Positions 5,567 through 44,413 of a stretch of DNA of 64,000 nucleotides are shown piece after piece. The DNA lies in assembly GCA_021780495.1 (NCBI GenBank), contig JAJXYO010000027.1, positions 114,507 to 178,506 on the forward strand, given 5' to 3'. Below the pieces are notes generated by a model, which saw only the letters and a program-made list of their open reading frames with translations, did no database searches and was not told the DNA's origin. The stretch's first letter is position 1; each line of letters opens with the position of its first letter. Source of the stretch: Deltaproteobacteria bacterium (GTDB taxonomy: Bacteria > Desulfobacterota > Desulfuromonadia > Geobacterales > Pseudopelobacteraceae). A program made the translations under genes and the position numbers.

Positions 5567-5815
5567 TTAAAGCCCCAGCTCACGCCGCAAATCCAGATAG
5601 GAAACCCGCTCGTCGGATTCTGCCAGGGCCGCCTTTGCCGCTGCAACGTCCATTTGGTCTTCCAGCTCTTCGAGAAGATCCAGGTCTTCAACCGGTACAA
5701 TTGCTACCAGTTTTTTACCACGCCGGGTCAGAACAAATCGCTCCTTGCCAAATGATGCCCGGTTGATGACATCAGCAAAATCGTTGCGGGCTTCTGCTGT
5801 TGATATATTGGTCAT
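5567..5815 (-). CDS. Phd/YefM-family antitoxin
   Basis: An 82-residue antitoxin from the ATG at 5815, preceded by GGAGG eight bases upstream; a frame extension to 5830 is less likely. The N-terminus MTNISTAEARNDFADVINRA is the Phd/YefM DNA-binding fold signature, followed by RFVLTRRGKKLVAIVPVEDL. The acidic C-terminal tail would neutralise the toxin. Its stop abuts the ATG of the frameshifted relE, so they form one operon. A palindrome just upstream is a probable operator for autoregulation. It may be kept as a remnant or act in trans on another RelE. Confidence 0.88.
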   Translation of the reverse strand: MTNISTAEARNDFADVINRASFGKERFVLTRRGKKLVAIVPVEDLDLLEELEDQMDVAAAKAALAESDERVSYLDLRRELGL

Positions 5816-5832
5816 GATGATAACCTCCATTT

Positions 5833-5845
5833 GTACAAATTGTAC
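5833..5845. promoter_or_regulatory. operator palindrome of the phd-relE module
   Basis: GTACAA-A-TTGTAC is a perfect 6-bp inverted repeat with a one-base centre, 18 bases upstream of the antitoxin ATG. Phd/YefM antitoxins commonly repress their own promoter at such short GTAC-containing palindromes. Binding is inferred. Confidence 0.5.
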
Positions 5846-6055
5846 GTTACGGACAAGATAAGGTCAAATAGTTTGTGCATGCCCACAGTTGCCGATTTTC
5901 TGGATGGTGAGGATCTTGGGGTACAGCATAGTTCCGTTCGGATACAATGGCTGTAGAGTAGTACCAGATTTGCGGCGGGGATTCCATGAAAATAGATGAA
6001 TGATTTTAGTTAAAATCAGCGTCTTCCGGTTTGGTGTGTGCATAAGTCAAAAGCG

Positions 6056-31109: not shown

Positions 31110-34100
31110 CTATGATCGGGTCTCTGCCTGTTCAGACAGCGGATCATAGGTCTTGAACACCTCATTGAAAATCCAGGCATGCAGCATATCCAGGGCGATC
31201 TTGGGCTGATACAGCGGCACCTGGTGGCCGGACATGGGGATCTCGATCTGCATCAGGTTGGCATAGCGCTTAAGGCAGCCCTGGGTAACCTTGTTGTTGC
31301 TGCTGTCGGTGGTGTACCACACCTGGCGCTTGAGCTTGGCCCAGCTGTCCCTGCCCGACCACTCCATGTTCCGCAGAATCTGTTCGGTGCCGGAAAAACC
31401 GCAGGACATATCGAAGTTGCCGGTATAAAAGAGCAGTTGGTAGGCCGGCTTGCCGTTGATGAGCGTTTCAACCAGAGGCGGAATAACCGTCGTAACCGAG
31501 GCCATCATGTCATTGATCAGGTTGTCGGAAACCGGTCCGGCGGCATCCTCGAAACTCCAGACAACCTCTGGCGGCACATGCAGGGCCTGCTTTACCAACG
31601 GGCTGCCCAGGTAGCTGCGCAGGGGCTGCAAGGAGGCATCCGACCAACTGCGGACATCGTAGATATTTTCGCCGCCGCCGCAGGCGGTCAGCGTGGAACT
31701 TAGCTTGGTTCCATCCGTGAAGGCCTGTTTCATATCCCCTTTTCTCAAATCCACGGAGAACTGTTCAAACTGGTTGAATGCGGTCTTCTTCTGATTGGTA
31801 TCGACCAAACCGAGCATAAAGGCGTACTGAATCTGATCAAAGGTCTGCTTTTCCGGGTACATCCAGCCGTCGCCGATAGCCATGCCCCGCAGCGGGATAT
31901 ACAGTCCATTGCCGGTTTTGTTGCGTGTGGTGATCTCTGTGGCGATGTACGGCAGATATTTGCCGGCATAACTTTCCCCGGTCAGATAGAGCGGATTGGC
32001 GCGGTATTCCGGGTGTTTGGCATAGAAATCCTGCAGGGCGGTGACGAACTGCCGGGCCAGTTCCGCTTCGGTTTTGACATAGGTATGCGGCTGTTTGGTG
32101 CTGAAGCCGGTGCCGACCGGCTGATCCCAGTAGATCAGATGGCTTTTGCTGTTCCAGCTGTAACTGTTTGGCGTCAGCAGGCCGTCGCTGCCCATGGCAA
32201 AGGGACCGTTTTCCAGAAACAGACCGGCCAGGGAGGAGGCGCCCGGGCCGCCATTGAGCCACAGCACCAGTGGCGTCTGTTCATCCGGTTTTGTCTGGCT
32301 TTCGAAGAACCAGTAAAACAGCTCGTTGCCGTTTTTATCGGCGGTGGCATACCCGGCGTAGGAGTTGTTGAGGGTGTACCAGCGGGCCGGTCGGGCGCTG
32401 GCGTCGCTCGGGATCGCCGCGACACGGTCGGGTGATTCGGCGGGCATGACGCGCTGTTGCAGGGTTTGCGCTGTTTGCAGGGTGGCGATCTGCTGCAAGA
32501 CCTCCTGTTTGAACAGCCCCATGATCATGTCGATAAAGCCGTTGGTGGTCGGCCAGGGATGCAGGATCGTGTTGATGATAAAGGTCATGGACTGATCGTC
32601 GGGTATGGTAATCCCCAGCTCGTTACCAATGCGTGTCAAGGGCACCTTGTAGTTCTGATTGCTGAGATTGGAGCTGGTGATGATAAAGGGGGTGTCTTTT
32701 TGATGGGCCTGTTCAGGGGTGGTAATGGAAAATTTCAGCAACAGGTTGTTGTTGAGCGTATTCAGCTTGCCAAGGTCCGTATTCCAGTGACCGTCCTTGT
32801 TCTTGAAGTTGACCACGAAGGAGTTGATCAGCGCATCCGAACCGATCTGTTGCAACACGGCAATCAGGTCCTGGTTCTGAGCCAGCTGCTCGTTGCTTGT
32901 GCCGATGATGTTGTCTCTGATGTAGCGGATGATGCCGGCCTTGCCGGTGGCCAGGGTTTGCCCCTGACAGCCGGTGATCTTTTCCGGCAGCGGCACCAGC
33001 GATTCTATCCGGAAGATATCGTCGTCGCCGGCCAGTGTCAGCCAGTAGCAGTAGTACAGTTTGGCGCTGAAGGCGCACTCGCCCAGGATCAGGCCGTAGC
33101 CGCTGTTGTCCAGCGGGATGCTGCGATGGGCCATCCAGACGGCTGCCGCGGCAGCGCCCGGCTTGGAGCCTTCCAGGCCGAAGATCCCCATGTTGAGACT
33201 GGCATCCGAATGGATGTAGGCGGCGTTGAAGGTGATGAAGTAGCGCATCAGGCCGTTACGGTAACAGAGCGAGCCGGCCGGGTACGGTATGAAACCGGCC
33301 TTGTGCGGATCGACCGTCAGTGTATCGGCCAGCTGTAAGAGCGCATACTGTTTCTGGGCATATGCCGAGAGCGGCACGGTGGCCACAAACCCGGACGGTT
33401 TCGCTGCTGCGCCGGCGGTGTGAGGATCGATCATCATGGTGCGCAGGTAGCCGCCCCAGGCGGCATCGCAGTGCACCAGGAAATTCAGTCCGTTGAAGCG
33501 AGAGCTGCCGCTGATGGTCTCCCGGCGCAGATCGAGGATACCTTCAAGGTTATCCACCACCCCTTCTTCGGTGCTGCCGATGACAACGACCACCATCAGC
33601 ACCGGGATACCGTTGCTGGCGCAATCCAGGAGTTGATCCCGTAACCGGCCGATATCCATGCGGCAGTTATCGTCGACCGGGATACCCACGACGCTGTCTT
33701 GCCCCAGCCCCAGAACGGTTCCCGATTTCGGCCAGGAATAGTGGTTGGTGGCCGGCACGAAGACCCGCATGGCCTTGATCTCGGGGTACCTCTGGCTGTA
33801 GTACATCAGCCCCTTGTTCTGGATCAGAAACGGGGTCAGAAATTTATCGATACCGGTCTCTTTATAGCGCGGACAGTAGTGAATGATATTTTCGGCCAGG
33901 CAGGAGACCTCATCGGGCAACAGGTTGAGCAGCTGCCAGGTCGTGCACTCGACGAGCGGTTTCGTTTTCAGCACCATCACGGCCGGGTTGCCTTCCGCTT
34001 CATACACGGTGACGGTAAGGTTTTGGTAGGCCTCGGCCAGTTCGTTCTTCCGGTAGCAAAACAGGGCCTCCTTGATTGCCAGGGGGTAGAATTTCAGATT

Positions 34101-34694
34101 CCTGGCTACCCACATGGATTCCAGATTGGCAATGGTGCCGTCAGCGGTGATATGCCCCCAGGGATTGACCTTGACCGGATTATCGTTGCTAGCCACCACG
34201 AACTCCCGGGCAAATCCCATCAGGCTGCAAAGCTGCCCGCCGACCTCCTTTTCCAGTGCACAGGTCTGGGGGCCGCCTTCGGTGGCAACATTATTCTGGT
34301 TGTACATCATGGCGGTGATATAGCCGACATTGGCCGGCAGAACCGTATCCCAGTTCATGTGGGCCTGGTAGCGCTCGCTGAAAAACGGCACACTGTCATG
34401 CAGTTTTTTTGACAGCTCCTGACGGGCAAGCTCCAGGTTCGTGCAGGCTGTCTGGTACTCCGGCGAGGATGTGATCTCCGCATCGATGTAGGGGGGATCG
34501 TTGTAGTAGGTCTTTCGGAACGCGGCATGCTCACTGAGGCTGGCGTTCACCAGCGTTTCCAGCAGGCCGGCATTTTCACCGCATGCCCCCAGAAACCAGG
34601 CGCCAACACGCTTGTAGCTCTCGTCAGCTGTTTCTTTTGTCTGGTTCTGCGCCATTGAAAACAGGGAATTCCGTTGGTTGCTTTGTTCTGACAT
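31110..34694 (-). CDS. tyrosine-decarboxylase-like PLP enzyme fused to S10 serine carboxypeptidase
   Basis: 1194 residues from the ATG at 34694 (AAGGAG nine bases upstream). Residues ~1-620 are a group II PLP decarboxylase very like enterococcal tyrosine decarboxylase: NPWGHITADGTIANLESMW, VPATNHYSWPKSGTVLGLG, VIGSTEEGVVDNLEGI, VHCDAAWGGYLRTM and the PLP lysine in VDPHKAGFIPYPAG near 463. Residues ~770-1190 are a peptidase family S10 domain: LWLNGGPGASSL, nucleophile Ser in GESYAGKYLP near 907, Asp in YTGNFDMSCGF near 1096 and His in MSGHQVPLYQP near 1155. Both active sites look complete. There is no signal peptide, so it is cytoplasmic. S10 enzymes are mainly eukaryotic, lysosomal or vacuolar, so the fusion is odd. 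It lies in the operon of the YG-repeat protein and radical SAM enzyme; processing of peptide ends and Tyr decarboxylation is an inference. Confidence 0.9.
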   Translation of the reverse strand: MSEQSNQRNSLFSMAQNQTKETADESYKRVGAWFLGACGENAGLLETLVNASLSEHAAFRKTYYNDPPYIDAEITSSPEYQTACTNLELARQELSKKLHDSVPFFSERYQAHMNWDTVLPANVGYITAMMYNQNNVATEGGPQTCALEKEVGGQLCSLMGFAREFVVASNDNPVKVNPWGHITADGTIANLESMWVARNLKFYPLAIKEALFCYRKNELAEAYQNLTVTVYEAEGNPAVMVLKTKPLVECTTWQLLNLLPDEVSCLAENIIHYCPRYKETGIDKFLTPFLIQNKGLMYYSQRYPEIKAMRVFVPATNHYSWPKSGTVLGLGQDSVVGIPVDDNCRMDIGRLRDQLLDCASNGIPVLMVVVVIGSTEEGVVDNLEGILDLRRETISGSSRFNGLNFLVHCDAAWGGYLRTMMIDPHTAGAAAKPSGFVATVPLSAYAQKQYALLQLADTLTVDPHKAGFIPYPAGSLCYRNGLMRYFITFNAAYIHSDASLNMGIFGLEGSKPGAAAAAVWMAHRSIPLDNSGYGLILGECAFSAKLYYCYWLTLAGDDDIFRIESLVPLPEKITGCQGQTLATGKAGIIRYIRDNIIGTSNEQLAQNQDLIAVLQQIGSDALINSFVVNFKNKDGHWNTDLGKLNTLNNNLLLKFSITTPEQAHQKDTPFIITSSNLSNQNYKVPLTRIGNELGITIPDDQSMTFIINTILHPWPTTNGFIDMIMGLFKQEVLQQIATLQTAQTLQQRVMPAESPDRVAAIPSDASARPARWYTLNNSYAGYATADKNGNELFYWFFESQTKPDEQTPLVLWLNGGPGASSLAGLFLENGPFAMGSDGLLTPNSYSWNSKSHLIYWDQPVGTGFSTKQPHTYVKTEAELARQFVTALQDFYAKHPEYRANPLYLTGESYAGKYLPYIATEITTRNKTGNGLYIPLRGMAIGDGWMYPEKQTFDQIQYAFMLGLVDTNQKKTAFNQFEQFSVDLRKGDMKQAFTDGTKLSSTLTACGGGENIYDVRSWSDASLQPLRSYLGSPLVKQALHVPPEVVWSFEDAAGPVSDNLINDMMASVTTVIPPLVETLINGKPAYQLLFYTGNFDMSCGFSGTEQILRNMEWSGRDSWAKLKRQVWYTTDSSNNKVTQGCLKRYANLMQIEIPMSGHQVPLYQPKIALDMLHAWIFNEVFKTYDPLSEQAETRS

Positions 34695-34824
34695 GTGCGT
34701 GTTCTCCTTACGAATAGAAATATGATTGCGGAAGTTCACTTGGGTCACGCCTACAGATTTCGTGTCCCTGAATCTGTAGACTCGATGCGTTTGCCGGATA
34801 TAAGAAATACTTATGTGTTGACAG

Positions 34825-35316
34825 CTACCCGTCGCTTATATTTACAGCGATCATCAATCGCTCATCTCCGGCGTACAACGTGCATGCAATGGCTTCGGAA
34901 GCGGACGGGAATATTTCACGAAAATCCCCATCCGTCACAAACACCGATGGTGTCGATAGCCGTACCTGCCGGCCTCTCCTGTCCAGGAACAGCTTTATGT
35001 CTCCACTGAGGATATTGACAATCTCGCCCATGGCATCAAACACATCAACTAAGAGCAGTTCATCACCCATGCACAACATCTCGGCAGAGGTACGCCGAGC
35101 CAGCGATTGCGGGCAATGCAGCGCCACTACCCCGCAATACGACCCTTCAAAACCAACCAGGGCTGTCAACCAGCCTTCCTGTTGTCCGGCCAACTGGCAC
35201 TGGCTCACCTTCAGGACAATATCAGCCGTCACCCGAAAGACATTACGGGCGCTATCCATCAGACATTGCTGCAGATCACTGCGTGAAATCATAGGACGTT
35301 GAGAATTACACAACAT
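34825..35316 (-). CDS. CheX-like phosphatase-fold protein
   Basis: About 163 residues. The segment DAMGEIVNILSGDIKLFL carries the ExxN motif used by CheC/CheX/FliY phosphatases to dephosphorylate CheY~P. The flanks (VLKVSQCQLAGQQEGW, VALHCPQSLARRTSAEML and FPSASEAIACTLYAG) fit the CheX alpha/beta fold. Only one ExxN motif is seen, as in CheX. The start is uncertain: ATG 35316 follows AGGAAC, while 35331 and 35289 are alternatives. It lies 32 bases after the radical SAM gene and 130 before the decarboxylase fusion. No chemotaxis gene is nearby, so its target could be one of the orphan receivers or it may have been recruited to another role. Confidence 0.75.
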   Translation of the reverse strand: MLCNSQRPMISRSDLQQCLMDSARNVFRVTADIVLKVSQCQLAGQQEGWLTALVGFEGSYCGVVALHCPQSLARRTSAEMLCMGDELLLVDVFDAMGEIVNILSGDIKLFLDRRGRQVRLSTPSVFVTDGDFREIFPSASEAIACTLYAGDERLMIAVNISDG

Positions 35317-35348
35317 GCGGTTCCTAACCATGGTTGTGATAGCCGGCT

Positions 35349-36890
35349 TCAGACTGCAACCGGGGTGAACATGCTACTCATCATTCCATGCAACATATCG
35401 CCTAATTGAGCGAACTGCGGAGACATCTGCCTTCCCCTCTCGATGACTTCACACGCTTCATCTTTCCGGCTGTTTTCGATCAGTAGCAGTGCCAGATCAT
35501 AGTAGGGGTCCATAAAGTGCTCGTCCGTCAGCTCGACCGCTCTATACAAGTACCGTATGCCTTCGTCTACGTGGCCAAGTCTGCTGAGAGACAAGCCCAT
35601 GCCCTTGTTGGCATAGACACTGTGCGGGTCGAGGTTCAGCACCGCTTCACTGGCCTTTCGGGCGGCGCTGTAATTGCCCAACATGAAGTTCACATAGCCA
35701 TGGTAATTGAGCAAATCGGTGTCGTGCGGTGCGGTTTCGAGGGCTTTTGAGATGGCCAGCTCGGCCAGTTGCAGTTCGCCTTTGTGGGCAAACTTTTTAC
35801 CAAGTCCGGCCAGTGATCGTTCATCGATATCGTGCAATTTATCGCTTGCCTTGCGCATCCCGACGTTATAGGAGCAGTATCTGTTTTCCGAGTGGATGTC
35901 GTTATTCATGGTGAGCCGTGTGTTTGGGCAGCCACCAAGACAGGTTTCGCCATATTTGCAGGTACCGCAGAGTCCGCCCAATTTCTCTTTGGTTATCCCC
36001 CTGCTCCAGCCGAACGTATCTTCACTGCTCCAGATGTCCGTCAGAGACCGGTCCCTGATATTGCCTTCAATGAACTGCCGGTCCCGTATGGAGGTACAGC
36101 CCAGGATGTCGCCATTATGCAGGATCCCGAAGCTGCGTTTCCCGGCGGTACACCCTTGCCATAACAGCGGCTGTTCCGAACGGTAGGCCTTGCTCCTCAC
36201 CTGCACTTCCCGGGAGTTGTAATAGCCGATGCAATCGGCGGGATAGATGCTGAGTCTGGGGTCATTCACACTCTCAAAGGTAAAATCTATGATCTCGTCT
36301 ACCTGTTCCGGCGAGATCAGCAGGTGATTGTTCTCGGCGAAGTTGCCCATGGGCAGACCGATTTGGAGTTGCCAGACAGTTACACCTTTGTCCAGCAGGA
36401 TCTCTCGTAATGCCGGCAATTCACGTATATTGCTTTTGTTGATGGTAGTTATGATCCCGGCCGTAATATTTTTCTTTCCGGCGAGATCGAGAGCCGCCAT
36501 GATTCTGTCGAACGATCCCTCTTTGCGCATAAAATCATGGGTTTCACGAATGCCATCAAGGCTGATGGCAAAGGTGCCGATGCCGCTCTCAGCCGCCTTG
36601 TCCAGGATCTCTTCCGTGATATACCACCCATTGGTGATGATGTTCGGGACCACCTTGTTCTGCCTGAGCCTTGCGGCAATCAGATGCCAGTCTTTCCTGG
36701 TCAGTGGTTCTCCGCCGGAAAGTGTGATCCACTTTAGCCCCAGCCTGCCTATGTCATCACAGAGACGGAGAGCTTCTTCGGTAGTCAGTTCGTCCGGCAA
36801 CGCACCTTCACAGCTTGATCCGCAATGCTTGCATCTTAGATTGCACCCCATGGTTATTTCCCACACGGCTGTTACTGGTTTATATTTCAT
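35349..36890 (-). CDS. radical SAM/SPASM enzyme with C-terminal TPR, putative YG-motif peptide maturase
   Basis: 513 residues from the ATG at 36890 (AAGGGG upstream); the frame continues upstream to 37046 but this is not homologous. The N-terminus MKYKPVTAVWEITMGCNLRC holds the radical SAM cluster CxxxCxxC at Cys16, Cys20 and Cys23, and LSGGEPL follows. A SPASM region at ~260-390 has the Cys ladder GCTAGKRSFGILHNGDILGC, then GLCGTCKYGETCLGGCPNTR, for auxiliary Fe-S clusters. Residues ~395-505 form TPR repeats (AELAISKALETAPHDTDLLN; AARKASEAVLNLDPHSVYAN). It lies directly downstream of the YG-repeat protein, separated by a hairpin. RiPP maturases of this class modify neighbouring precursors; the TPR may hold the long substrate. 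Splicease chemistry on XYG sites is inferred. Confidence 0.88.
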   Translation of the reverse strand: MKYKPVTAVWEITMGCNLRCKHCGSSCEGALPDELTTEEALRLCDDIGRLGLKWITLSGGEPLTRKDWHLIAARLRQNKVVPNIITNGWYITEEILDKAAESGIGTFAISLDGIRETHDFMRKEGSFDRIMAALDLAGKKNITAGIITTINKSNIRELPALREILLDKGVTVWQLQIGLPMGNFAENNHLLISPEQVDEIIDFTFESVNDPRLSIYPADCIGYYNSREVQVRSKAYRSEQPLLWQGCTAGKRSFGILHNGDILGCTSIRDRQFIEGNIRDRSLTDIWSSEDTFGWSRGITKEKLGGLCGTCKYGETCLGGCPNTRLTMNNDIHSENRYCSYNVGMRKASDKLHDIDERSLAGLGKKFAHKGELQLAELAISKALETAPHDTDLLNYHGYVNFMLGNYSAARKASEAVLNLDPHSVYANKGMGLSLSRLGHVDEGIRYLYRAVELTDEHFMDPYYDLALLLIENSRKDEACEVIERGRQMSPQFAQLGDMLHGMMSSMFTPVAV

Positions 36891-36972
36891 GTAAAGTTTT
36901 CCCCTTCCGCGGTATGAGTCTCTACCTCTACAAAAGCTGGATGCTGCGAGCGAACCGGGTGAGATACAAAAC

Positions 36973-37000
36973 GGGAACACCTCCATCAGGAAGTGTCCCC
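36973..37000 (-). terminator. hairpin between YG-repeat precursor and radical SAM gene
   Basis: On the minus strand, arms 37000-36989 and 36984-36973 pair over 12 bp (two G-U) with a 4-base loop and GTTTTG behind, 14 bases after the precursor stop. It probably acts as a leaky terminator so that precursor mRNA exceeds maturase mRNA, as also seen at 57639-57664. Confidence 0.6.
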
Positions 37001-37014
37001 GGAACGCAGAGCAG

Positions 37015-38082
37015 TTAGTTCTCTCTCGGTTCAGCCGGTACTCCATACTTCAGCAGACAATTTTCGTGTTCCTCAGCGGCGACGGGAAAGCCGTATTTGA
37101 CAACACAGCTTTCCGCATCCTTGGCAATACCGGTCGGTATCCCATATTTGACCAGACAACTCTCACCATCGCCAGCCTCCCTGACATGTACCGGCATGCC
37201 GTATTTCACCAGGCAGTTATCATGGGCCTCCGCCATGAGGCCAGGTATGCCGTATTTGAGGATACAGTTTTCCTGATCTTCCATGATTTCAACCGGGCAG
37301 CCATATTTTACCAAGCAGTTTTCCGCGTCTTCCTCGGCATGAATAGGAAAACCGTACTTCATAACCGGGACACCATACTTCAGCACACAACTGTCCTTAT
37401 CTAGCGCGCCTTGAACCGGAACGCCGTATTTCATAACAGGAATGCCGTACTTCACATGCGGCATGCCGTATTTCACATGACAATCATCGGCGTGCTCCGC
37501 GAGATGAACAGGAAATCCATACTTCAGCACACACTCTGCATCAGTTTTTGCTACTCCAAGTGGAGTGCCGTATGCCAGTAAACATTTTTCGTCATGATGC
37601 ACAACGCGAAGCGGGAATCCATAGGGCATTGCGGCAACTGAAGTGCCGCATTTTGTAGGCGCCATATACAGCGCCGAGCTGGGAGAGACGGGCCGCCACA
37701 GATTTTGCGCAGATACTCCGGCAACAAACCTGCCGCAGCCGATGGTATCTTCCAGATCCTGTTCAACAGTTTTTTGGGCGGCCTTGATCGTCAAGGCAAA
37801 TACTCTTTTATCTACGACGTTGTTGGGTTGCGTTGGCCTTATTTTTTGGAATTTGAGAAAGGATTGATCTTCCTTGACTGCAACAAAGACATACACAAAC
37901 TCCGATGAACTGCCGCTCATTGCAGAAGACGCTACCTCGTGCCGGACATCCAGCAAGTTAATACAGTCAGGCATATGTGACAGAACCCATCTGAACCCGG
38001 TTGACGCGGATTGAGAAGAATCAAGCCTGACTTCAAAAAACCCTCCAACAGTTGCAGCAATGTTGCCCATGGTACCTTCCAT
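37015..38082 (-). CDS. chagasin-like (I42) domain fused to 14 YGxP motifs; putative RiPP precursor protein
   Basis: 355 residues, with AGGAGG upstream of the ATG at 38082 and no signal peptide. Residues ~8-105 resemble the chagasin/inhibitor I42 fold: GGFFEVRLDSSQSASTGFRW (Ser25-Trp32, matching the NPTTGYxW loop), then SSSEFVYVFVAVKEDQSFLK and a RPT loop like the RPW loop. From ~150 onward come 14 Tyr-Gly-x-Pro motifs, 12 of them preceded by Lys: CVLKYGFPV, CHVKYGMPHVKYGIPVMKYG, CLVKYGCPV, CILKYGIPG, CLVKYGMPV and others. Most are preceded by Cys and separated by acidic spacers (HAEEDAEN, EIMEDQEN). Multicore precursors look like this, and XYG is the recognition motif of radical SAM spliceases that excise tyramine and leave alpha-keto-beta-amino acids. 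The maturase gene follows. Modification is inferred. Confidence 0.85.
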   Translation of the reverse strand: MEGTMGNIAATVGGFFEVRLDSSQSASTGFRWVLSHMPDCINLLDVRHEVASSAMSGSSSEFVYVFVAVKEDQSFLKFQKIRPTQPNNVVDKRVFALTIKAAQKTVEQDLEDTIGCGRFVAGVSAQNLWRPVSPSSALYMAPTKCGTSVAAMPYGFPLRVVHHDEKCLLAYGTPLGVAKTDAECVLKYGFPVHLAEHADDCHVKYGMPHVKYGIPVMKYGVPVQGALDKDSCVLKYGVPVMKYGFPIHAEEDAENCLVKYGCPVEIMEDQENCILKYGIPGLMAEAHDNCLVKYGMPVHVREAGDGESCLVKYGIPTGIAKDAESCVVKYGFPVAAEEHENCLLKYGVPAEPREN

Positions 38083-38305
38083 AACTTATTCCTCCTTTTA
38101 TTTTTTGTAGCCCGCCGGAGATCTGAAATCCATCCGACACCCGATACTGATCCACCTCGACCTAGGTACCCACTTAACAGCACCTTCCATTTTGACACCG
38201 GACTGGACACTGATCCTGCGAACTCTCCTTCCCCTGCTCATCATCGCAACGCCAGCGGCATCACGACCTCCTGCGGGCACGTTTATCTGTCGGGTTGCCC
38301 ATACT

Positions 38306-40042
38306 CTACCTGCGCGCTGCCTCCAGCGAACCGAGCTGTTTCCGGAGCGTTGTCCCATACACCCTGTCAAAATCGGCCAGTTTTCCTTCATAGCGCCACT
38401 GGGCACCGGCCTTGGCGTTCAAGGTGATAAAGCTGCTGCATGGTTCGCCGGGCCGGGCGCTGCCCAATGTTTCCCCCCGGCACTGGCTGACAACCCTGGT
38501 TGCCGGCGCCGCCTGCCAGAGGGATTGGCCGGGCAGGAAGCTGTACTCCAGGCTCGCCCGCGCCAAACGTACCACTTCGGGGTAGCTCAGGTGGTACTGG
38601 CCGACGGCGTAGAGCCACTCGCTGGTGAAATCCGTATGGGAAACCCCCTCGTCGTCCGTCGAGAAGGCCACCGCCACGCCGTACTTCCGGAAATATTGCT
38701 CAAAGGGATGGTCAGCGCCCGAGACCCCCAGGATCTGGGCATTACTGGCCATGGGGACTTCCACCAGGGTGTTGTTCCGTTTCATCAGCGCCGCCAGCGC
38801 TGCCTGGTCGCTAGCGTTGAGATAGGCAAAGGACACGGCATGCCCTATCCGCTTTGCCCCGGCCTGGATCGAAGCGCTGATATGGTCCAGCAGCGCCGGA
38901 TTGCTGCTGCCCACGAAACAGGGGGTGAGCTCGCCAGCATGCAGGGCGATGTTGACCCGAGGAAAGCGGGTATGGAAGTAGCTGAAGAACTGCATCTGCG
39001 GTGAAAAGCTTTGCATCGAAACGGGCGAGTCTTCAGCGCTGAGCAGGTTCACCCCCACCACCCGCGGTTCCCTGTCCGCCAGCATGCTGTACAAGGCCAC
39101 CTGGGTGAATATTTTCGGCAGGTCGGGGTTCCCGTCTGGCAAGGCCGCATTCCGGTTTACGGCAGCCTGGAAGTTGAAAGCAACCTCGCAGGCCGGGTCC
39201 GGGGCGGCGCTGCCGCAGCCGAGGAAGGAGCGTACCCCGTTCACGTAGGACACGGCATCAGCCTGCGCCGCCTGCACGGCATCCTGCAACCCCGCTCCCA
39301 GCAGATACGCGAACATGGCCGGGTAATTGCCGCTCTGGGTGAAGGCGGCCGGGTCCGGATACCGCTGGCGCAACAGATCGGCCAGACGGCTGATTGCAGC
39401 GGATTGGAAGGAGGTCATGGTTTCCACATAGCTGACATTGTCGTCATGGGCCTGTTGCAGGAGTTTCGCCAGCATCGGCGCCATGTTGGGGGGATAACCG
39501 GACACCGCCCCGAAACGGCCGAAGGTCGCAAAGAACTGGTCATGACCGGCCTGGATCGAGCTGAACCCTGTTTCGTTGAAGCGGTACAGGGAAAGCGACT
39601 GCAGCAATCGTTGCCGTTCCCCGGCGCTGGCCTGCGTCAATGGTTTGAACCCGCCGGCGCAGACGCCGGGCGCTGTGGCCGGCTGGATCGTGTACATGGC
39701 CGGTACGGGCGCATCGGGCCCGAAGCAGTTCCCGTGTGCGCTGCCGAGGGCCAGGTACTCTTCCGGCATCACGCTCCCCGAAAGGTGGTTATGGAGGTCA
39801 GCCCCCTTGGGGAATTTCTTCAGGATGCCGGCCAGGTCGGGCCGCTTCGTTGTGATGTTGTCGATAACACCGAAATAGGCCTGCACGGCGCGGTTGTCCT
39901 GGCTGCAACCGATAACGGAAGACGATGGTAGCAGCTGCGCATCCCTGCCCGTTGGGCCAAGGTTCGCGCAGCCTTGAAGCAGAGCGAGTCCCAGAACGAA
40001 TGACGGAACGAATACACGGGATAGCATGCTGCTACGGATCAT
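38306..40042 (-). CDS. lipoprotein adenosine deaminase-like amidohydrolase
   Basis: 578 residues, with AGGAG six bases before the ATG at 40042. The signal peptide ends in the lipobox LALLQGC (Cys25), so the protein is membrane-anchored outside the cytoplasm. The deaminase barrel carries all zinc-site motifs: KGADLHNHLSGSVMPEEYL (HxH), IALHAGELTP (His and catalytic Glu), RIGHAVSFA (His) and FSTDDEGVSHTDF (Asp pair). It resembles secreted adenosine deaminases of the ADGF type, longer than cytosolic Add by an N-terminal insert. Expected reaction: adenosine to inosine, for extracellular purine salvage. It precedes the YG-repeat operon by 223 bases on the same strand; whether it belongs to it is unclear. 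Confidence 0.88.
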   Translation of the reverse strand: MIRSSMLSRVFVPSFVLGLALLQGCANLGPTGRDAQLLPSSSVIGCSQDNRAVQAYFGVIDNITTKRPDLAGILKKFPKGADLHNHLSGSVMPEEYLALGSAHGNCFGPDAPVPAMYTIQPATAPGVCAGGFKPLTQASAGERQRLLQSLSLYRFNETGFSSIQAGHDQFFATFGRFGAVSGYPPNMAPMLAKLLQQAHDDNVSYVETMTSFQSAAISRLADLLRQRYPDPAAFTQSGNYPAMFAYLLGAGLQDAVQAAQADAVSYVNGVRSFLGCGSAAPDPACEVAFNFQAAVNRNAALPDGNPDLPKIFTQVALYSMLADREPRVVGVNLLSAEDSPVSMQSFSPQMQFFSYFHTRFPRVNIALHAGELTPCFVGSSNPALLDHISASIQAGAKRIGHAVSFAYLNASDQAALAALMKRNNTLVEVPMASNAQILGVSGADHPFEQYFRKYGVAVAFSTDDEGVSHTDFTSEWLYAVGQYHLSYPEVVRLARASLEYSFLPGQSLWQAAPATRVVSQCRGETLGSARPGEPCSSFITLNAKAGAQWRYEGKLADFDRVYGTTLRKQLGSLEAARR

Positions 40043-41774: not shown

Positions 41775-42344
41775 ATGAATCACGTCATCAGAATGCTGCT
41801 CTATCTCTCGGTTGCCGTACTGCTTTCGGCATGTTCTTCGACACCGCTTGTCAAACAGCCCCCTGAATGGGGTTATGAGAAAGATGCCATCCAGCTGCAC
41901 GTGGTCAGCGATCCGCACCTGAACCTCTATCAGAAGCGCGCCCACTCGCTGATCGTATGCCTTTACCACCTGCGCGATCCCAATGGCTTTAACCAGCTGA
42001 TCGATGAAAAAGACGGTCTGCCCCGGCTGCTGGAATGCAACCGCTTTGATCCGAGCGTCACCTATTCCAGGAGACTGGTGATCCAGCCGCACCAGGAAAT
42101 AACCGAACTGCTGGACCGGACGGACGGTGCAAAATTCATCGGTATCGTGACGGGCTACTACGATCTGCAGAAAGAGAGCACGACCAGATCCTATCGTATC
42201 CCCATCACCGAGGTCAAAAGAGGTTCCGTGCTCGTGCAGAAGACAGCCAAACTGAACATTGAGCTGTACCTGGGGTCACAGGGCATCACGCAACCTGTCA
42301 CGCCGAACGTTACATCAAATATTCAAGCCAAGGACACGCAATGA
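41775..42344 (+). CDS. tssJ: type VI secretion lipoprotein TssJ
   Basis: 189 residues; signal and lipobox VLLSACSS (Cys near 20) anchor it in the outer membrane, where TssJ holds the TssL-TssM complex. The fold-typical segments IQLHVVSDPHLNLYQKRAHS and LIVCLYHLRDPNGFNQLIDE are present, as is the second half (FIGIVTGYYDLQKEST). AAGGA lies nine bases before the ATG. Its stop overlaps the tssK ATG by four bases, and it heads the tssJKLM operon. Confidence 0.94.
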   Translation: MNHVIRMLLYLSVAVLLSACSSTPLVKQPPEWGYEKDAIQLHVVSDPHLNLYQKRAHSLIVCLYHLRDPNGFNQLIDEKDGLPRLLECNRFDPSVTYSRRLVIQPHQEITELLDRTDGAKFIGIVTGYYDLQKESTTRSYRIPITEVKRGSVLVQKTAKLNIELYLGSQGITQPVTPNVTSNIQAKDTQ

Positions 42345-43729
42345 ACGCACAGCGGCCACTATTCTGGGACCAGGGCATCCTGCTGCAACCGCAGCACTTT
42401 CAGTTATTCGACCGGAGCTGTCAGGGGCTGCTCGCCCCCTATCAAAAATACCTGGAGCCGCATTTCTGGGGGGTCGGGGCAATGACGATCCAGAAAAGCG
42501 CACTCGGCACACGAACCTTCAACCTGCAGGCGGGTGAATTCCTGTTTCCCGACGGCAGCTTTGTGTCACTACCCGACAACGGCTGTATCGATACCCGCGC
42601 CTTCGATGAAGCCTGGGTGGAGGGCGGCAAGCCGTTCACCGTCTACCTGGGACTCAAAAAATGGCGCGAGACGGGAGAAAACGTCACCGTCCTGCCGACC
42701 CTTGAAACGGTTGCTGCCGTCTCCACCCGGTTTGTAACGACTACCGGCCACGAAGAGGTCAAGGACCTGCACGCCGGCGGCCCGGAGAGCCAGGTCAAAC
42801 GGCTGCGCTTCGTCCTGAAAATCTTCTGGGAGACCGAGCAGGATCAGCTGGGTGAGTATGAACTGATCCCCCTGGCCCAACTGGAGAGGTTCGGTGCTGA
42901 GATCCGACTCTCGGAGGACTTTATCCCCCCTTCCCTTTCCTGCTCATCAGCGCCAGCGCTCTACACGCTGATCAGGGAGATCCGCGACCAGATTACGTCC
43001 CGCAGCTACCAGCTGGAAGAGCACAAGAGCAAACGGGGCATCCAGACCGCCGAGTTCGGTTCCCGGGATATGGTCTACTTTCTGGCCCTCAGGTCGGTCA
43101 ATCGTTACGTCCCGCTGCTGTTCCACTACACCGAGACCGAGCAGGTCCACCCCTGGCATCTGTACGGCATCCTGCGGCAGCTGATCGGCGAACTGACCGC
43201 CTTTTCGGAGCGGGTCAGCGTCCTGGGTGAACTGCCGGACGGGAAGAAGATGCTGCCCGCCTACGACCACGGCAACCTGTGGGGCTGCTTTTCTGCTGCC
43301 CAGGACATGATTTCCCACCTGCTCGACGAGATCACCGCCGGCCCCGAATACGTCATCCGCCTGGCCTACGACGGGACCTTCTATGCAGCCGATCTCAAGC
43401 CGGCCATCTTTGAAGGGCGCAACCGCTTCTACCTGGCGGTAAAAACCGAAGCGGATCCCGCGACCGTGCTCCAGGCCCTGGAAGACATTGCCAAGCTGAG
43501 TTCCCGCGAGCATCTGGACATGCTGGTTTCCCGGTCGCTGCCCGGCATCGGCCTGCAGCACCTGCAGATCCCGCCCCAGGAACTCCCCCGCCGGTCAAAC
43601 ACACTCTATTTCGCGATCAACCACCACGACGACCAATGGACGGCGGTGGGCAAACAATACTGCCTGGCCCTGTACTGGAACAGCGCTCCGGCGGATATGG
43701 AAATTGAACTGATGGTAGTGGGGAGATAA
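42341..43729 (+). CDS. tssK: type VI secretion baseplate protein TssK
   Basis: 462 residues. TssK trimers link the baseplate to the TssJLM membrane complex. The N-terminus RPLFWDQGILLQPQHFQLFD is the family signature (WxxGxxLxPQHFQ), and the C-terminus includes GIGLQHLQIPPQELPRRSNT and YFAINHHDDQW, typical of the family. The length is normal. It overlaps tssJ by four bases and precedes tssL by three, so expression is coupled. Confidence 0.95.
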   Translation: MNAQRPLFWDQGILLQPQHFQLFDRSCQGLLAPYQKYLEPHFWGVGAMTIQKSALGTRTFNLQAGEFLFPDGSFVSLPDNGCIDTRAFDEAWVEGGKPFTVYLGLKKWRETGENVTVLPTLETVAAVSTRFVTTTGHEEVKDLHAGGPESQVKRLRFVLKIFWETEQDQLGEYELIPLAQLERFGAEIRLSEDFIPPSLSCSSAPALYTLIREIRDQITSRSYQLEEHKSKRGIQTAEFGSRDMVYFLALRSVNRYVPLLFHYTETEQVHPWHLYGILRQLIGELTAFSERVSVLGELPDGKKMLPAYDHGNLWGCFSAAQDMISHLLDEITAGPEYVIRLAYDGTFYAADLKPAIFEGRNRFYLAVKTEADPATVLQALEDIAKLSSREHLDMLVSRSLPGIGLQHLQIPPQELPRRSNTLYFAINHHDDQWTAVGKQYCLALYWNSAPADMEIELMVVGR

Positions 43730-43732
43730 CAC

Positions 43733-44413
43733 ATGCACTTGAGCGACTGTTTTATGGATGTCATGGCCTACGTTACCTATTTGTTGAAATCGGTGGAAAC
43801 GAAACAACCACCCTACGAGGAGGTCAAAAACGACATCCGCAGACTGCTGGCGGACAGTGAAGGCTCCGTGGCCCGGGGAGTTGTCCAGCGCGACGACTAT
43901 GACCAGGCGCGCTTTGCACTCTGCGCCTGGGTCGATGAGGCCATTCTCAGCTCCTGCTGGCAGCATAAAAACCGCTGGCTGAACGATCAGCTGCAGCGCC
44001 TCCATTACAACACCACCGATGCCGGGGAGGAATTTTTTCAACGCCTGGCCAATATCGGCCTGCACCAGCGGGATGTGCGCGAGGTCTACTATCTCTGCCT
44101 GGCCCTCGGATTTACCGGCCGCTATTGCCATCCCGGTGATGAATACAACCTGGAGCAGATCAAGACCTCCAACCTCAAGCTCCTTCTGGGCAGCTCGGTC
44201 GGCATCCCTTCGCTGGAGCGGGCGGACCTGTTTCCCGAAGCCTATCCCAGCGGTGCCGTGGAATTGGGCAAGCAGAAGATGCGGGCGGGTTCGCGGCTGG
44301 TGGCGGCCATCTGTCTGGCCGCCCCGCTGGTGCTGTTCTGCATCCTGTACCTGATTTATCACTTCACCTTGAGCGGGATCAGCGAAAACTTTCTAAGGAC
44401 GGTGACCAACTGA
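43733..44413 (+). CDS. tssL: type VI secretion protein TssL (DotU/IcmH family)
   Basis: 226 residues. The cytoplasmic DotU domain contains ALCAWVDEAILSS, LQRLHYNTTDAGEEFFQRL and VYYLCLALGFTGRY, followed by a single C-terminal membrane helix (LVAAICLAAPLVLFCILYLI). There is no peptidoglycan-binding OmpA extension, as in many short TssL. It anchors the membrane complex with TssM and TssJ. The stop is one base before the tssM ATG. Confidence 0.95.
   Translation: MHLSDCFMDVMAYVTYLLKSVETKQPPYEEVKNDIRRLLADSEGSVARGVVQRDDYDQARFALCAWVDEAILSSCWQHKNRWLNDQLQRLHYNTTDAGEEFFQRLANIGLHQRDVREVYYLCLALGFTGRYCHPGDEYNLEQIKTSNLKLLLGSSVGIPSLERADLFPEAYPSGAVELGKQKMRAGSRLVAAICLAAPLVLFCILYLIYHFTLSGISENFLRTVTN

What the first reader, a model, noticed from the sequence alone, without database searches (positions are those of the whole stretch)
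35349..38082. Chagasin-like protein with 14 YGxP motifs beside a radical SAM/SPASM-TPR enzyme: probable multi-site protein splicing RiPP system
Seen: a 355-residue protein with an N-terminal I42/chagasin-like domain and 14 Tyr-Gly-x-Pro sites, 12 as Lys-Tyr-Gly, most preceded by Cys and separated by acidic spacers, followed by a radical SAM/SPASM gene. Known: radical SAM spliceases (PlpX type) recognise XYG motifs, excise tyramine and leave an alpha-keto-beta-amino acid. Inference: this is a splicease system acting many times on one large protein whose N-terminal domain is itself a protease-inhibitor fold. I know of no described example with this architecture.
Basis: partly seen in the sequence, partly recalled or inferred. 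Interest (0 to 1): 0.95.

Follow-up and report, generated by a model that had tools for sequence, protein, structure and literature searches.

The report
Chagasin-headed protein spliced at fourteen sites
A bacterial gene pair encodes a protein with a protease-inhibitor-like (chagasin-fold) domain and a tail of fourteen Tyr-Gly-x-Pro motifs, next to a radical SAM enzyme that likely cuts a piece out of each of these tyrosines and rejoins the chain, which would stud one protein with many reactive, possibly protease-blocking groups.

Summary
In detail: the 355-aa protein (37015-38082, minus strand) has an I42/chagasin domain and 14 YGxP sites (12 KYG, 10 with Cys at -4); 20,000 shuffles give at most 2. 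The radical SAM/SPASM/TPR gene follows, likely starting at 36890, not 37046. The splicease reading gains independent support. Forty-three relatives of the precursor have 6-22 YG each. Against two relatives about 78% alike, motif positions never change (0 of 64) while spacers do (50 of 138, 49 of 136). I read the DNA at 21 loci of this enzyme family: 20 of 21 have an XYG precursor beside the enzyme, on unrelated scaffolds: 4 I42-like proteins, 15 GG-leader peptides (cores like PIRPLYGIEP, close to the PlpA2-derived splice tag), one tiny ORF. The exception is an I42 protein with KYMAP repeats. The enzyme shares residues with a PlpX-type enzyme but scores 222 bits against that model's cut-off of 725. 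Most likely a divergent splicease turns up to 14 XYG sites into alpha-keto-beta-amino acids. Chemistry and protease inhibition are untested; multi-site splicing is known, and the key survey (Scott et al. 2022) could not be read. New variant of a known kind.

The parts
37015..38082 (-). Precursor/substrate protein, 355 aa: I42/chagasin domain plus array of 14 YGxP motifs
   Evidence: ORF; Pfam; motif counts; Shine-Dalgarno-like AAGGAGG upstream of the ATG read directly
37786..38052 (-). I42/chagasin-fold domain (residues 11-99)
37657..37671 (-). Variant site LYMAP (Y139), same form as the LYMAP/KYMAP repeats of the relative in L068
37036..37626 (-). Array of 14 XYGxP sites (Y154 to Y346), mostly CxxKYGxP, many 17 residues apart; predicted disordered
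36972..37001 (-). Terminator-like hairpin (13 pairs, T-rich tail) between precursor and enzyme genes; possible attenuator giving more precursor than enzyme
   Evidence: 4 such sites found in 3.8 kb, 3.0 expected in shuffles; fold z -2.96; weak
35349..36890 (-). Radical SAM/SPASM/TPR enzyme, 513 aa from MKYKPVTAVWE: predicted splicease
36408..36860 (-). Radical SAM core, CxxxCxxC at C16/C20/C23
   Evidence: Pfam; invariant columns
35955..36152 (-). SPASM domain; cysteines C247, C265, C308, C311 (and C317, C321, C339 just beyond the Pfam match) invariant in 57 rows
   Evidence: Pfam
35406..35816 (-). TPR region (about residues 359-495), possible substrate-docking part
   Evidence: Pfam; TPR matches to solved structures; role inferred

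Best explanation
[quoted passage not shown] Shown by sequence: the gene pair, the conserved array, the full set of radical SAM and SPASM cysteines, linkage of the enzyme family to XYG precursors on unrelated scaffolds. Inferred: the I42 domain (and perhaps the TPR region) brings enzyme and substrate together in place of a short leader and PlpY; the ketoamides act as electrophilic warheads, so that the product would be a many-headed protease inhibitor, the I42 fold adding a docking surface for papain-like peptidases of another organism (no papain-family enzyme was detected in the host genome, which is 90% complete).
For: (1) Substrate array: 43 relatives of the precursor (39, 4 more); in P0001-P0039, 412 YG sites lie beyond residue 100, 375 with Pro at +3, 277 preceded by Lys. 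Window against P0002: 0 of 64 motif positions changed (Y, G, P, K-1, C-4), 50 of 138 spacer and 16 of 105 I42 positions; P0001, P0003 and P0004 also 0 changed in the motif, P0006 (about 52% alike) 5 of 63. (2) Enzyme-substrate logic: 21 loci of the enzyme family read at DNA level: window, L005, Agathobacter L015 and 18 Clostridia loci including L007. 20 of 21 have an XYG precursor next door: 4 I42-like proteins, 15 short GG-leader peptides with 3-6 XYG each (66 of 80 tyrosines after GG are in YG), and a 35-residue MYG ORF with a Shine-Dalgarno in L015. In the GG type Pro is at +3 in 6 and at +4 in 49 of 66 sites and Cys at -4 in 0 of 66, so XYG is what the two types share. (3) GG cores (PIRPLYGIEP in L053) resemble the PlpA2-derived tag PIRPGYGLPI/PIRPLYGLPI; its GYG form was spliced in an Affibody and two FtsZ constructs (PMC10533398, passages). 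(4) Enzyme kinship: best NCBIfam hit TIGR04103 for the window and for 5 of 6 relatives scanned (TIGR03913 for P0048); PlpX is described as IPR026482 (PMC11002830, passage; that this is the InterPro form of TIGR04103 is recalled). V9, G24, W68, Q174, Q176, W244, G255, I262, G264, N336 are shared by at least 90% of 21 family enzymes with the Nostoc nif11_3 and two DUF1843-linked enzymes, and absent from all 5 host SPASM enzymes compared (of 10 others found). (5) Enzyme subclades track scaffold type: 2 changes for 3 groups, shuffled mean 12.7. (6) The array is predicted disordered (residues 126-353 nearly all under pLDDT 50), the I42 domain well folded.
Against: No mass or activity data. The enzyme scores 221.9 bits against a cut-off of 725 for TIGR04103 and is about 33% identical to the Nostoc member. 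PlpX works with PlpY (literature passages); a search with the 71-aa ORF beside the Nostoc enzyme found no relative among small frames of the window stretch and eight loci (only itself), though a divergent partner could be missed. L068, inside the I42 enzyme clade, has LYMAP/KYMAP sites and no YG. Across 43 relatives 112 of 558 tyrosines beyond residue 118 are not in YG. A conserved Cys at many I42-type sites (233 of 412) is not explained by tyramine excision. In FtsZ, both LYG versions of the tag in the published table were not spliced, so a look-alike motif is not enough. The window's I42 loops only partly match the inhibitory motifs of chagasin.
Confidence: 0.7

Rival explanations
1. The enzyme makes a different radical modification at the same sites, most likely a thioether or carbon-carbon crosslink between the conserved Cys at -4 and the Tyr/Gly (or neighbouring) residue, giving a string of small rings.
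For: Cys at -4 in 233 of 412 sites, and C184/K187 among invariant columns of A1; SPASM enzymes commonly make thioethers (general knowledge); the enzyme is far below the TIGR04103 cut-off; KYMAP repeats in L068 lack Gly.
Against: 179 of 412 sites lack that Cys; in the 15 GG-type precursors it is at 0 of 66 sites; XYG motifs like these go with related enzymes, and the one studied (PlpX) excises tyramine.
Confidence: 0.18
2. Splicing happens, but the I42 domain is only a folded leader (recognition handle) and no longer a protease inhibitor; the spliced tail has another role.
For: No papain-family match and no other I42 in the host genome (90% complete); the window's inhibitory loops deviate (SASTG for NPTTG, RPT for RPW/F; loop motifs from PMC2607524, passages); RPW is kept in only 14 of 43 relatives; no signal peptide is evident by eye (no tool run).
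Against: All 24 hits of a search with the array alone also have the I42-type N-terminus (20 of 24 with the Pfam label, the other 4 by homology); TG..W is kept in 39 of 43; spliced beta-residues are reported as protease-inhibitory (PMC10373908, passage).
Confidence: 0.4
3. The repeats are a structural or metal-binding (Cys-rich) module and the radical SAM gene acts on something else.
For: Regular 17-residue spacing (143 of 373 intervals) and conserved Cys could fit a metal-binding repeat.
Against: Array predicted disordered; enzyme and XYG precursor close together in 20 of 21 loci; the same enzyme family sits by unrelated XYG peptides without that Cys.
Confidence: 0.05

Closest known systems
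PlpX/PlpY splicease and PlpA precursors (spliceotides, Pleurocapsa)
   Same: Radical SAM/SPASM enzyme next to an XYG precursor; the PlpA2-derived tag PIRP(L/G)YGLPI resembles LYGFPP and PIRPLYGIEP sites here; several splicing events per precursor are possible (PMC10373908, passage)
   Different: About 33% identity to the Nostoc relative used as proxy (the PlpX sequence itself was not available); C-terminal TPR; no PlpY-like gene found; I42 protein with 14 sites instead of a Nif11/nitrile-hydratase-leader peptide; mostly KYG
Chagasin / I42 cysteine-peptidase inhibitors (chagasin, EhICP2, PaICP)
   Different: Followed by a repeat tail of about 245 residues; loop 4 and loop 6 motifs not kept in the window protein; no evident secretion signal
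GDL-motif/DUF1843 peptide maturases (TIGR03913)
   Same: Share WQxQ, MGN, GYY, WxGCxAG with the window enzyme; the precursors have one or two Tyr near the N-terminus
   Different: Separate clade with the Nostoc enzyme; short non-repeat precursors, XYG in 2 of the 5 peptides read, YA in 2, YM in 1
Clostridial GG-leader multi-XYG peptides with C39 exporters (found here)
   Same: Enzymes 49-58% identical to the window enzyme, matching over its whole length, TPR region included; 3-6 XYG sites per core
   Different: Short peptides with double-glycine leaders; a C39 peptidase-transporter ORF in 10 of 15 loci by a motif scan; Pro at +4 (49 of 66) rather than +3

Membership tests
PlpX-type splicease (TIGR04103 / IPR026482) | Radical SAM CxxxCxxC and SPASM with two auxiliary-cluster cysteine sets | tested here: met
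   Invariant C16, C20, C23, C247, C265, C308, C311, C317, C321, C339 in 57 aligned rows
PlpX-type splicease (TIGR04103 / IPR026482) | Score above the curated cut-off of the family model | tested here: not met
   221.9 bits against 725; still the best of 95 models. The Nostoc enzyme scores 853
PlpX-type splicease (TIGR04103 / IPR026482) | Adjacent precursor with XYG motif | tested here: met
   Window, and 20 of 21 family loci read; L068 has XYMAP instead
PlpX-type splicease (TIGR04103 / IPR026482) | Separate RRE partner protein PlpY | tested here: inconclusive
   phmmer with the 71-aa ORF beside the Nostoc enzyme against 987 small frames of window 33001-40000 and L005, L007, L015, L016, L049, L053, L054, L068 found only itself; no RRE profile was searched, and that this ORF is PlpY is inferred from its place
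[quoted passage not shown]
   Needs co-expression and mass spectrometry
I42 chagasin family | Sequence profile and Ig-like chagasin fold | tested here: met
I42 chagasin family | Inhibitory loops NPTTG, GXGG, RPW/F | tested here: not met
   Window has SASTG, SGSS, RPT (read; motifs from PMC2607524, passages); 14 of 43 relatives keep RPW
I42 chagasin family | Tight inhibition of C1 cysteine peptidases | not testable with these tools
   Needs enzyme assays
Spliceotide precursor (Nif11/nitrile-hydratase leader type) | Nif11 or nitrile-hydratase-like leader | tested here: not met
   Only I42 above cut-off in the window protein

The most novel reading that the evidence does not exclude
A previously undescribed class of many-headed protease inhibitor found in bacteria and methanogenic archaea: one chagasin-fold docking domain carrying a disordered tail in which a processive TPR-bearing splicease installs up to 14 (in a relative up to 22) alpha-keto-beta-amino acid warheads, so that a large protein, not a small peptide, becomes densely beta-amino-acid-modified.
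Probability: 0.4. Interest if true: 0.87.

Novelty: new variant of a known kind. Interest (0 to 1): 0.7.

Why it matters
If true, a ribosomally made protein can be edited in the backbone a dozen or more times by one enzyme, which would give a natural source of a multi-site splicease (the tetrazine-labelling paper PMC10533398 says that more processive spliceases would broaden its method; passage) and a ready series of substrates (KYG, LYG, MYG, KYMAP) to learn its rules. It also makes a testable link between a classical protease-inhibitor fold and ketoamide warheads with Lys at P1.

Tried and rejected
A DNA-pattern scan of genome contigs gave 8 stretches; only L005 and L007 hold array genes, the other six look like chance. 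A viral-contig pattern scan gave one phage contig that looks like chance. Scans of viral contigs with the enzyme gave no relative or 8 loci of 22-32% identity that I did not read. The enzyme has no match in the phage records; the precursor has none in the plasmid records. The enzyme matched 6 plasmid records, of which I read four (H1, H2, H5, H6); H3, H4 and a seventh record (Tropicibacter) were not read. Only H1 (Agathobacter) is close enough to count in the family; the others are PlpX/DUF1843-type.

The idea that the CheX-like gene or the decarboxylase-carboxypeptidase gene belongs to the cassette was dropped: neighbours in L005 and L007 differ. A tyramine link to the decarboxylase next door is only a coincidence of names so far. 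The first YG scan of L068 picked an overlapping ORF in another frame; reading all frames showed the true neighbour, an I42 protein with KYMAP, and I recounted. The first such tree labelled L068 wrongly; one search is the corrected one. The YG scan also flags stray ORFs (two more in L068, one each in L069 and L073), and an earlier filter missed the precursor of L049 (found). Enzyme labels P0041, P0043, P0046, P0049, P0052, P0055, P0125, P0138, P0156 are paired only by equal longest-contig length with precursors P0002, P0003, P0006, P0012, P0010, P0160, P0020, P0025, P0028: 9 of 43 precursors, with only the best 120 of 2902 enzyme hits shown; they serve as labels in the trees and are not among the 21 loci. 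In Methanococcus both proteins occur but linkage was not read. A Methanococcus voltae proteomics paper (PMC9431491, passages) names two unassigned SPASM proteins, but nothing ties them to this family. Pfam did not recognise the I42 part of L054; it is called I42-like because it matches P0039 (46% identity), itself below the Pfam cut-off.

The main prior-art paper, Scott et al., Chem 2022 (10.1016/j.chempr.2022.09.017), is not held; I saw only its citation and what citing papers say of it. Morinaka et al. 2018 and Lakis et al. 2022 were not read. Whether the I42 or GG types are already in print is therefore open.
Full report
What is there. On the minus strand, 38082-37015 encodes a 355-residue protein and 36890-35349 a radical SAM/SPASM/TPR enzyme. 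The enzyme ORF can be opened at 37046, inside the precursor, but the database copy and the consensus of 12 relatives start at MKYKPVTAVWE or its like. Upstream of the precursor ATG is AAGGAGG; the 124-base gap between the genes holds a 13-pair hairpin with a T-rich tail, which could make more precursor than enzyme, though such sites are about as frequent as chance in this stretch (4 found, 3.0 expected).

The array. Fourteen of 14 YG sites are YGxP; 12 are KYG; 10 have Cys at -4; shuffled sequences reach 2 at most. A protein search gave 39 relatives and a search with the array alone 24, four of them new, 43 in all. They carry 6-22 YG beyond residue 100, 2-22 of them YGxP. The alignment (window plus P0002-P0039) has F16, W32, F78, F119, C184, K187, P191, Y313, G314, Y330, G331 invariant. 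Against P0002 (about 78% identical), motif positions changed at 0 of 64, spacers at 50 of 138, the I42 domain at 16 of 105; P0003 gives 0 of 64, 49 of 136 and 19 of 105; P0004 0 of 59, 58 of 124 and 51 of 104; P0006 5 of 63, 81 of 131 and 52 of 104. The motif is under strong selection in a freely changing linker. Counter-observation: 112 of 558 tyrosines beyond residue 118 in the 43 proteins are not in YG; 17 are Y[AM] and 13 of these have Pro at +3, so LYMAP/LYAFP look like variant sites; the window has one (Y139).

The enzyme. Its best NCBIfam models are TIGR04103 (nif11-class maturase 3) and TIGR03913 (GDL maturase), both far below cut-off; five of six relatives scanned have TIGR04103 first, P0048 has TIGR03913. 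A Nostoc plasmid enzyme labelled nif11-class maturase 3 stands next to a Nif11 precursor ending GGRGSIALYGLPPELF. Ten residues, including the WQxQ glutamines and W244, are shared by at least 90% of 21 family enzymes with this enzyme and two DUF1843-linked ones and are missing in all 5 host SPASM enzymes compared (10 others were found; five were used). GYY, M and N of MGN are shared too but occur once among the five. PlpX is described as IPR026482 (PMC11002830, passage); its own sequence was not at hand.

The decisive comparison. Where else does this enzyme family occur, and next to what? Host class: 1 of 277 genomes (itself); phylum: 1 of 395 (itself). The array was found in 0 of 3 other genomes of the genus; in 57 relatives only the host and one weak 94-position match (G039, E 7e-4), with no YGxP-rich frame in its locus L003. 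The cassette looks horizontally acquired. Class of the L005 genome: 1 of 369 (itself). Class of the L007 genome: 7 of 391. Order of G1004: 13 of 58 genomes, 16 loci, 5 of them known already. I read the neighbourhoods of all 18 Clostridia loci, the window, L005 and the Agathobacter plasmid locus L015: 21. Results: I42-type arrays with YG in window, L005, L007, L054 (4); GG-leader peptides with 3-6 XYG in 15 (L049-L053, L062, L067, L069-L076); a 35-residue MYG ORF in L015; and in L068 an I42 protein with one LYMAP and four KYMAP but no YG. So 20 of 21 have XYG. As a control, the same scan around 10 other SPASM matches of the host (about 3.2 kb each, some overlapping the same region) gave 1 stray hit; in the family loci it also gave strays in L068, L069 and L073. 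I42 and GG precursors share no recognisable scaffold; Pro sits at +3 in 375 of 412 sites of one type and at +4 in 49 of 66 (+3 in 6) of the other, which also has no Cys at -4 (0 of 66); in both, Lys or Leu is common before YG. XYG is therefore the likely site of action. The GG core PIRPLYGIEP (L053) resembles the PlpA2-derived tag PIRP(L/G)YGLPI; in PMC10533398 (passages) its GYG form was spliced in an Affibody and in two FtsZ constructs, while many FtsZ constructs, both LYG ones among them, were not spliced, so context matters.

Tree. GG-linked enzymes form one group (90/95 with the Agathobacter enzyme), I42-linked ones surround it, the Nostoc/DUF1843 enzymes are outside; three labels need 2 changes, shuffled mean 12.7. 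L068 fell among the I42 enzymes before its I42 gene was recognised. Nine of the I42 labels rest on equal contig lengths only.

Mechanism. [quoted passage not shown] The cassette seems to need only two genes: L005 and L007 have different neighbours, and a search with the Nostoc PlpY-like ORF found no counterpart. No papain-family peptidase was found in the host genome (90% complete), so if the protein inhibits one, the target is probably foreign. GG-type loci often carry a C39 peptidase-transporter (10 of 15, motif scan; L049 checked by NCBIfam and Pfam); in the I42-type loci L005, L007, L054 and L068 the scan found none. How the I42 product would leave the cell is unknown.

Known or new. Splicing, its XYG motif, several events per precursor and protease inhibition by products are in print (PMC10373908 and PMC10533398, passages). 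What I could not find in the searched library is an I42 scaffold (0 papers for chagasin with radical SAM); the survey most likely to contain it is not held. Hence: new variant of a known kind.

Noticed in passing
L068 3350-3904 (+): I42 protein with one LYMAP and four KYMAP repeats next to an enzyme placed among the I42-linked ones: a natural motif variant (Gly replaced by Met) that would show whether Gly is needed.
   Followed up: partly
L049-L053, L062, L067, L069-L076: Family of short Clostridia GG-leader peptides with 3-6 XYG sites beside TPR-bearing radical SAM enzymes, often with a C39 exporter; a second such peptide in L052 and L069. No NCBIfam hit for the three precursors scanned, no Pfam hit for the two of them.
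   Followed up: partly
L015 about 5805-5912 (+): Unannotated 35-residue ORF ending PVMYGTGVRM with a strong Shine-Dalgarno, just upstream of a radical SAM gene on an Agathobacter rectalis replicon from human gut.
   Followed up: partly
window 31110-34748 (-): One 1212-aa ORF joins a pyridoxal-dependent decarboxylase domain to a serine carboxypeptidase (S10) domain, an unusual fusion.
   Followed up: no
window 41775-44413 (+): Type VI secretion genes (TssJ, TssK, TssL-like).
   Followed up: no
P0016-P0018: The I42 array occurs in methanogenic archaea (Methanococcus), beyond the bacterial range given for spliceases in the passage read; a family enzyme also occurs there (P0059), linkage not read.
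   Followed up: partly
L017 4168-4881, L018 3293-3748: DUF1843 peptides beside related enzymes have one or two N-terminal Tyr (YG in 2 of 5 peptides, YA in 2, YM in 1); they may be substrates of related chemistry.
   Followed up: no
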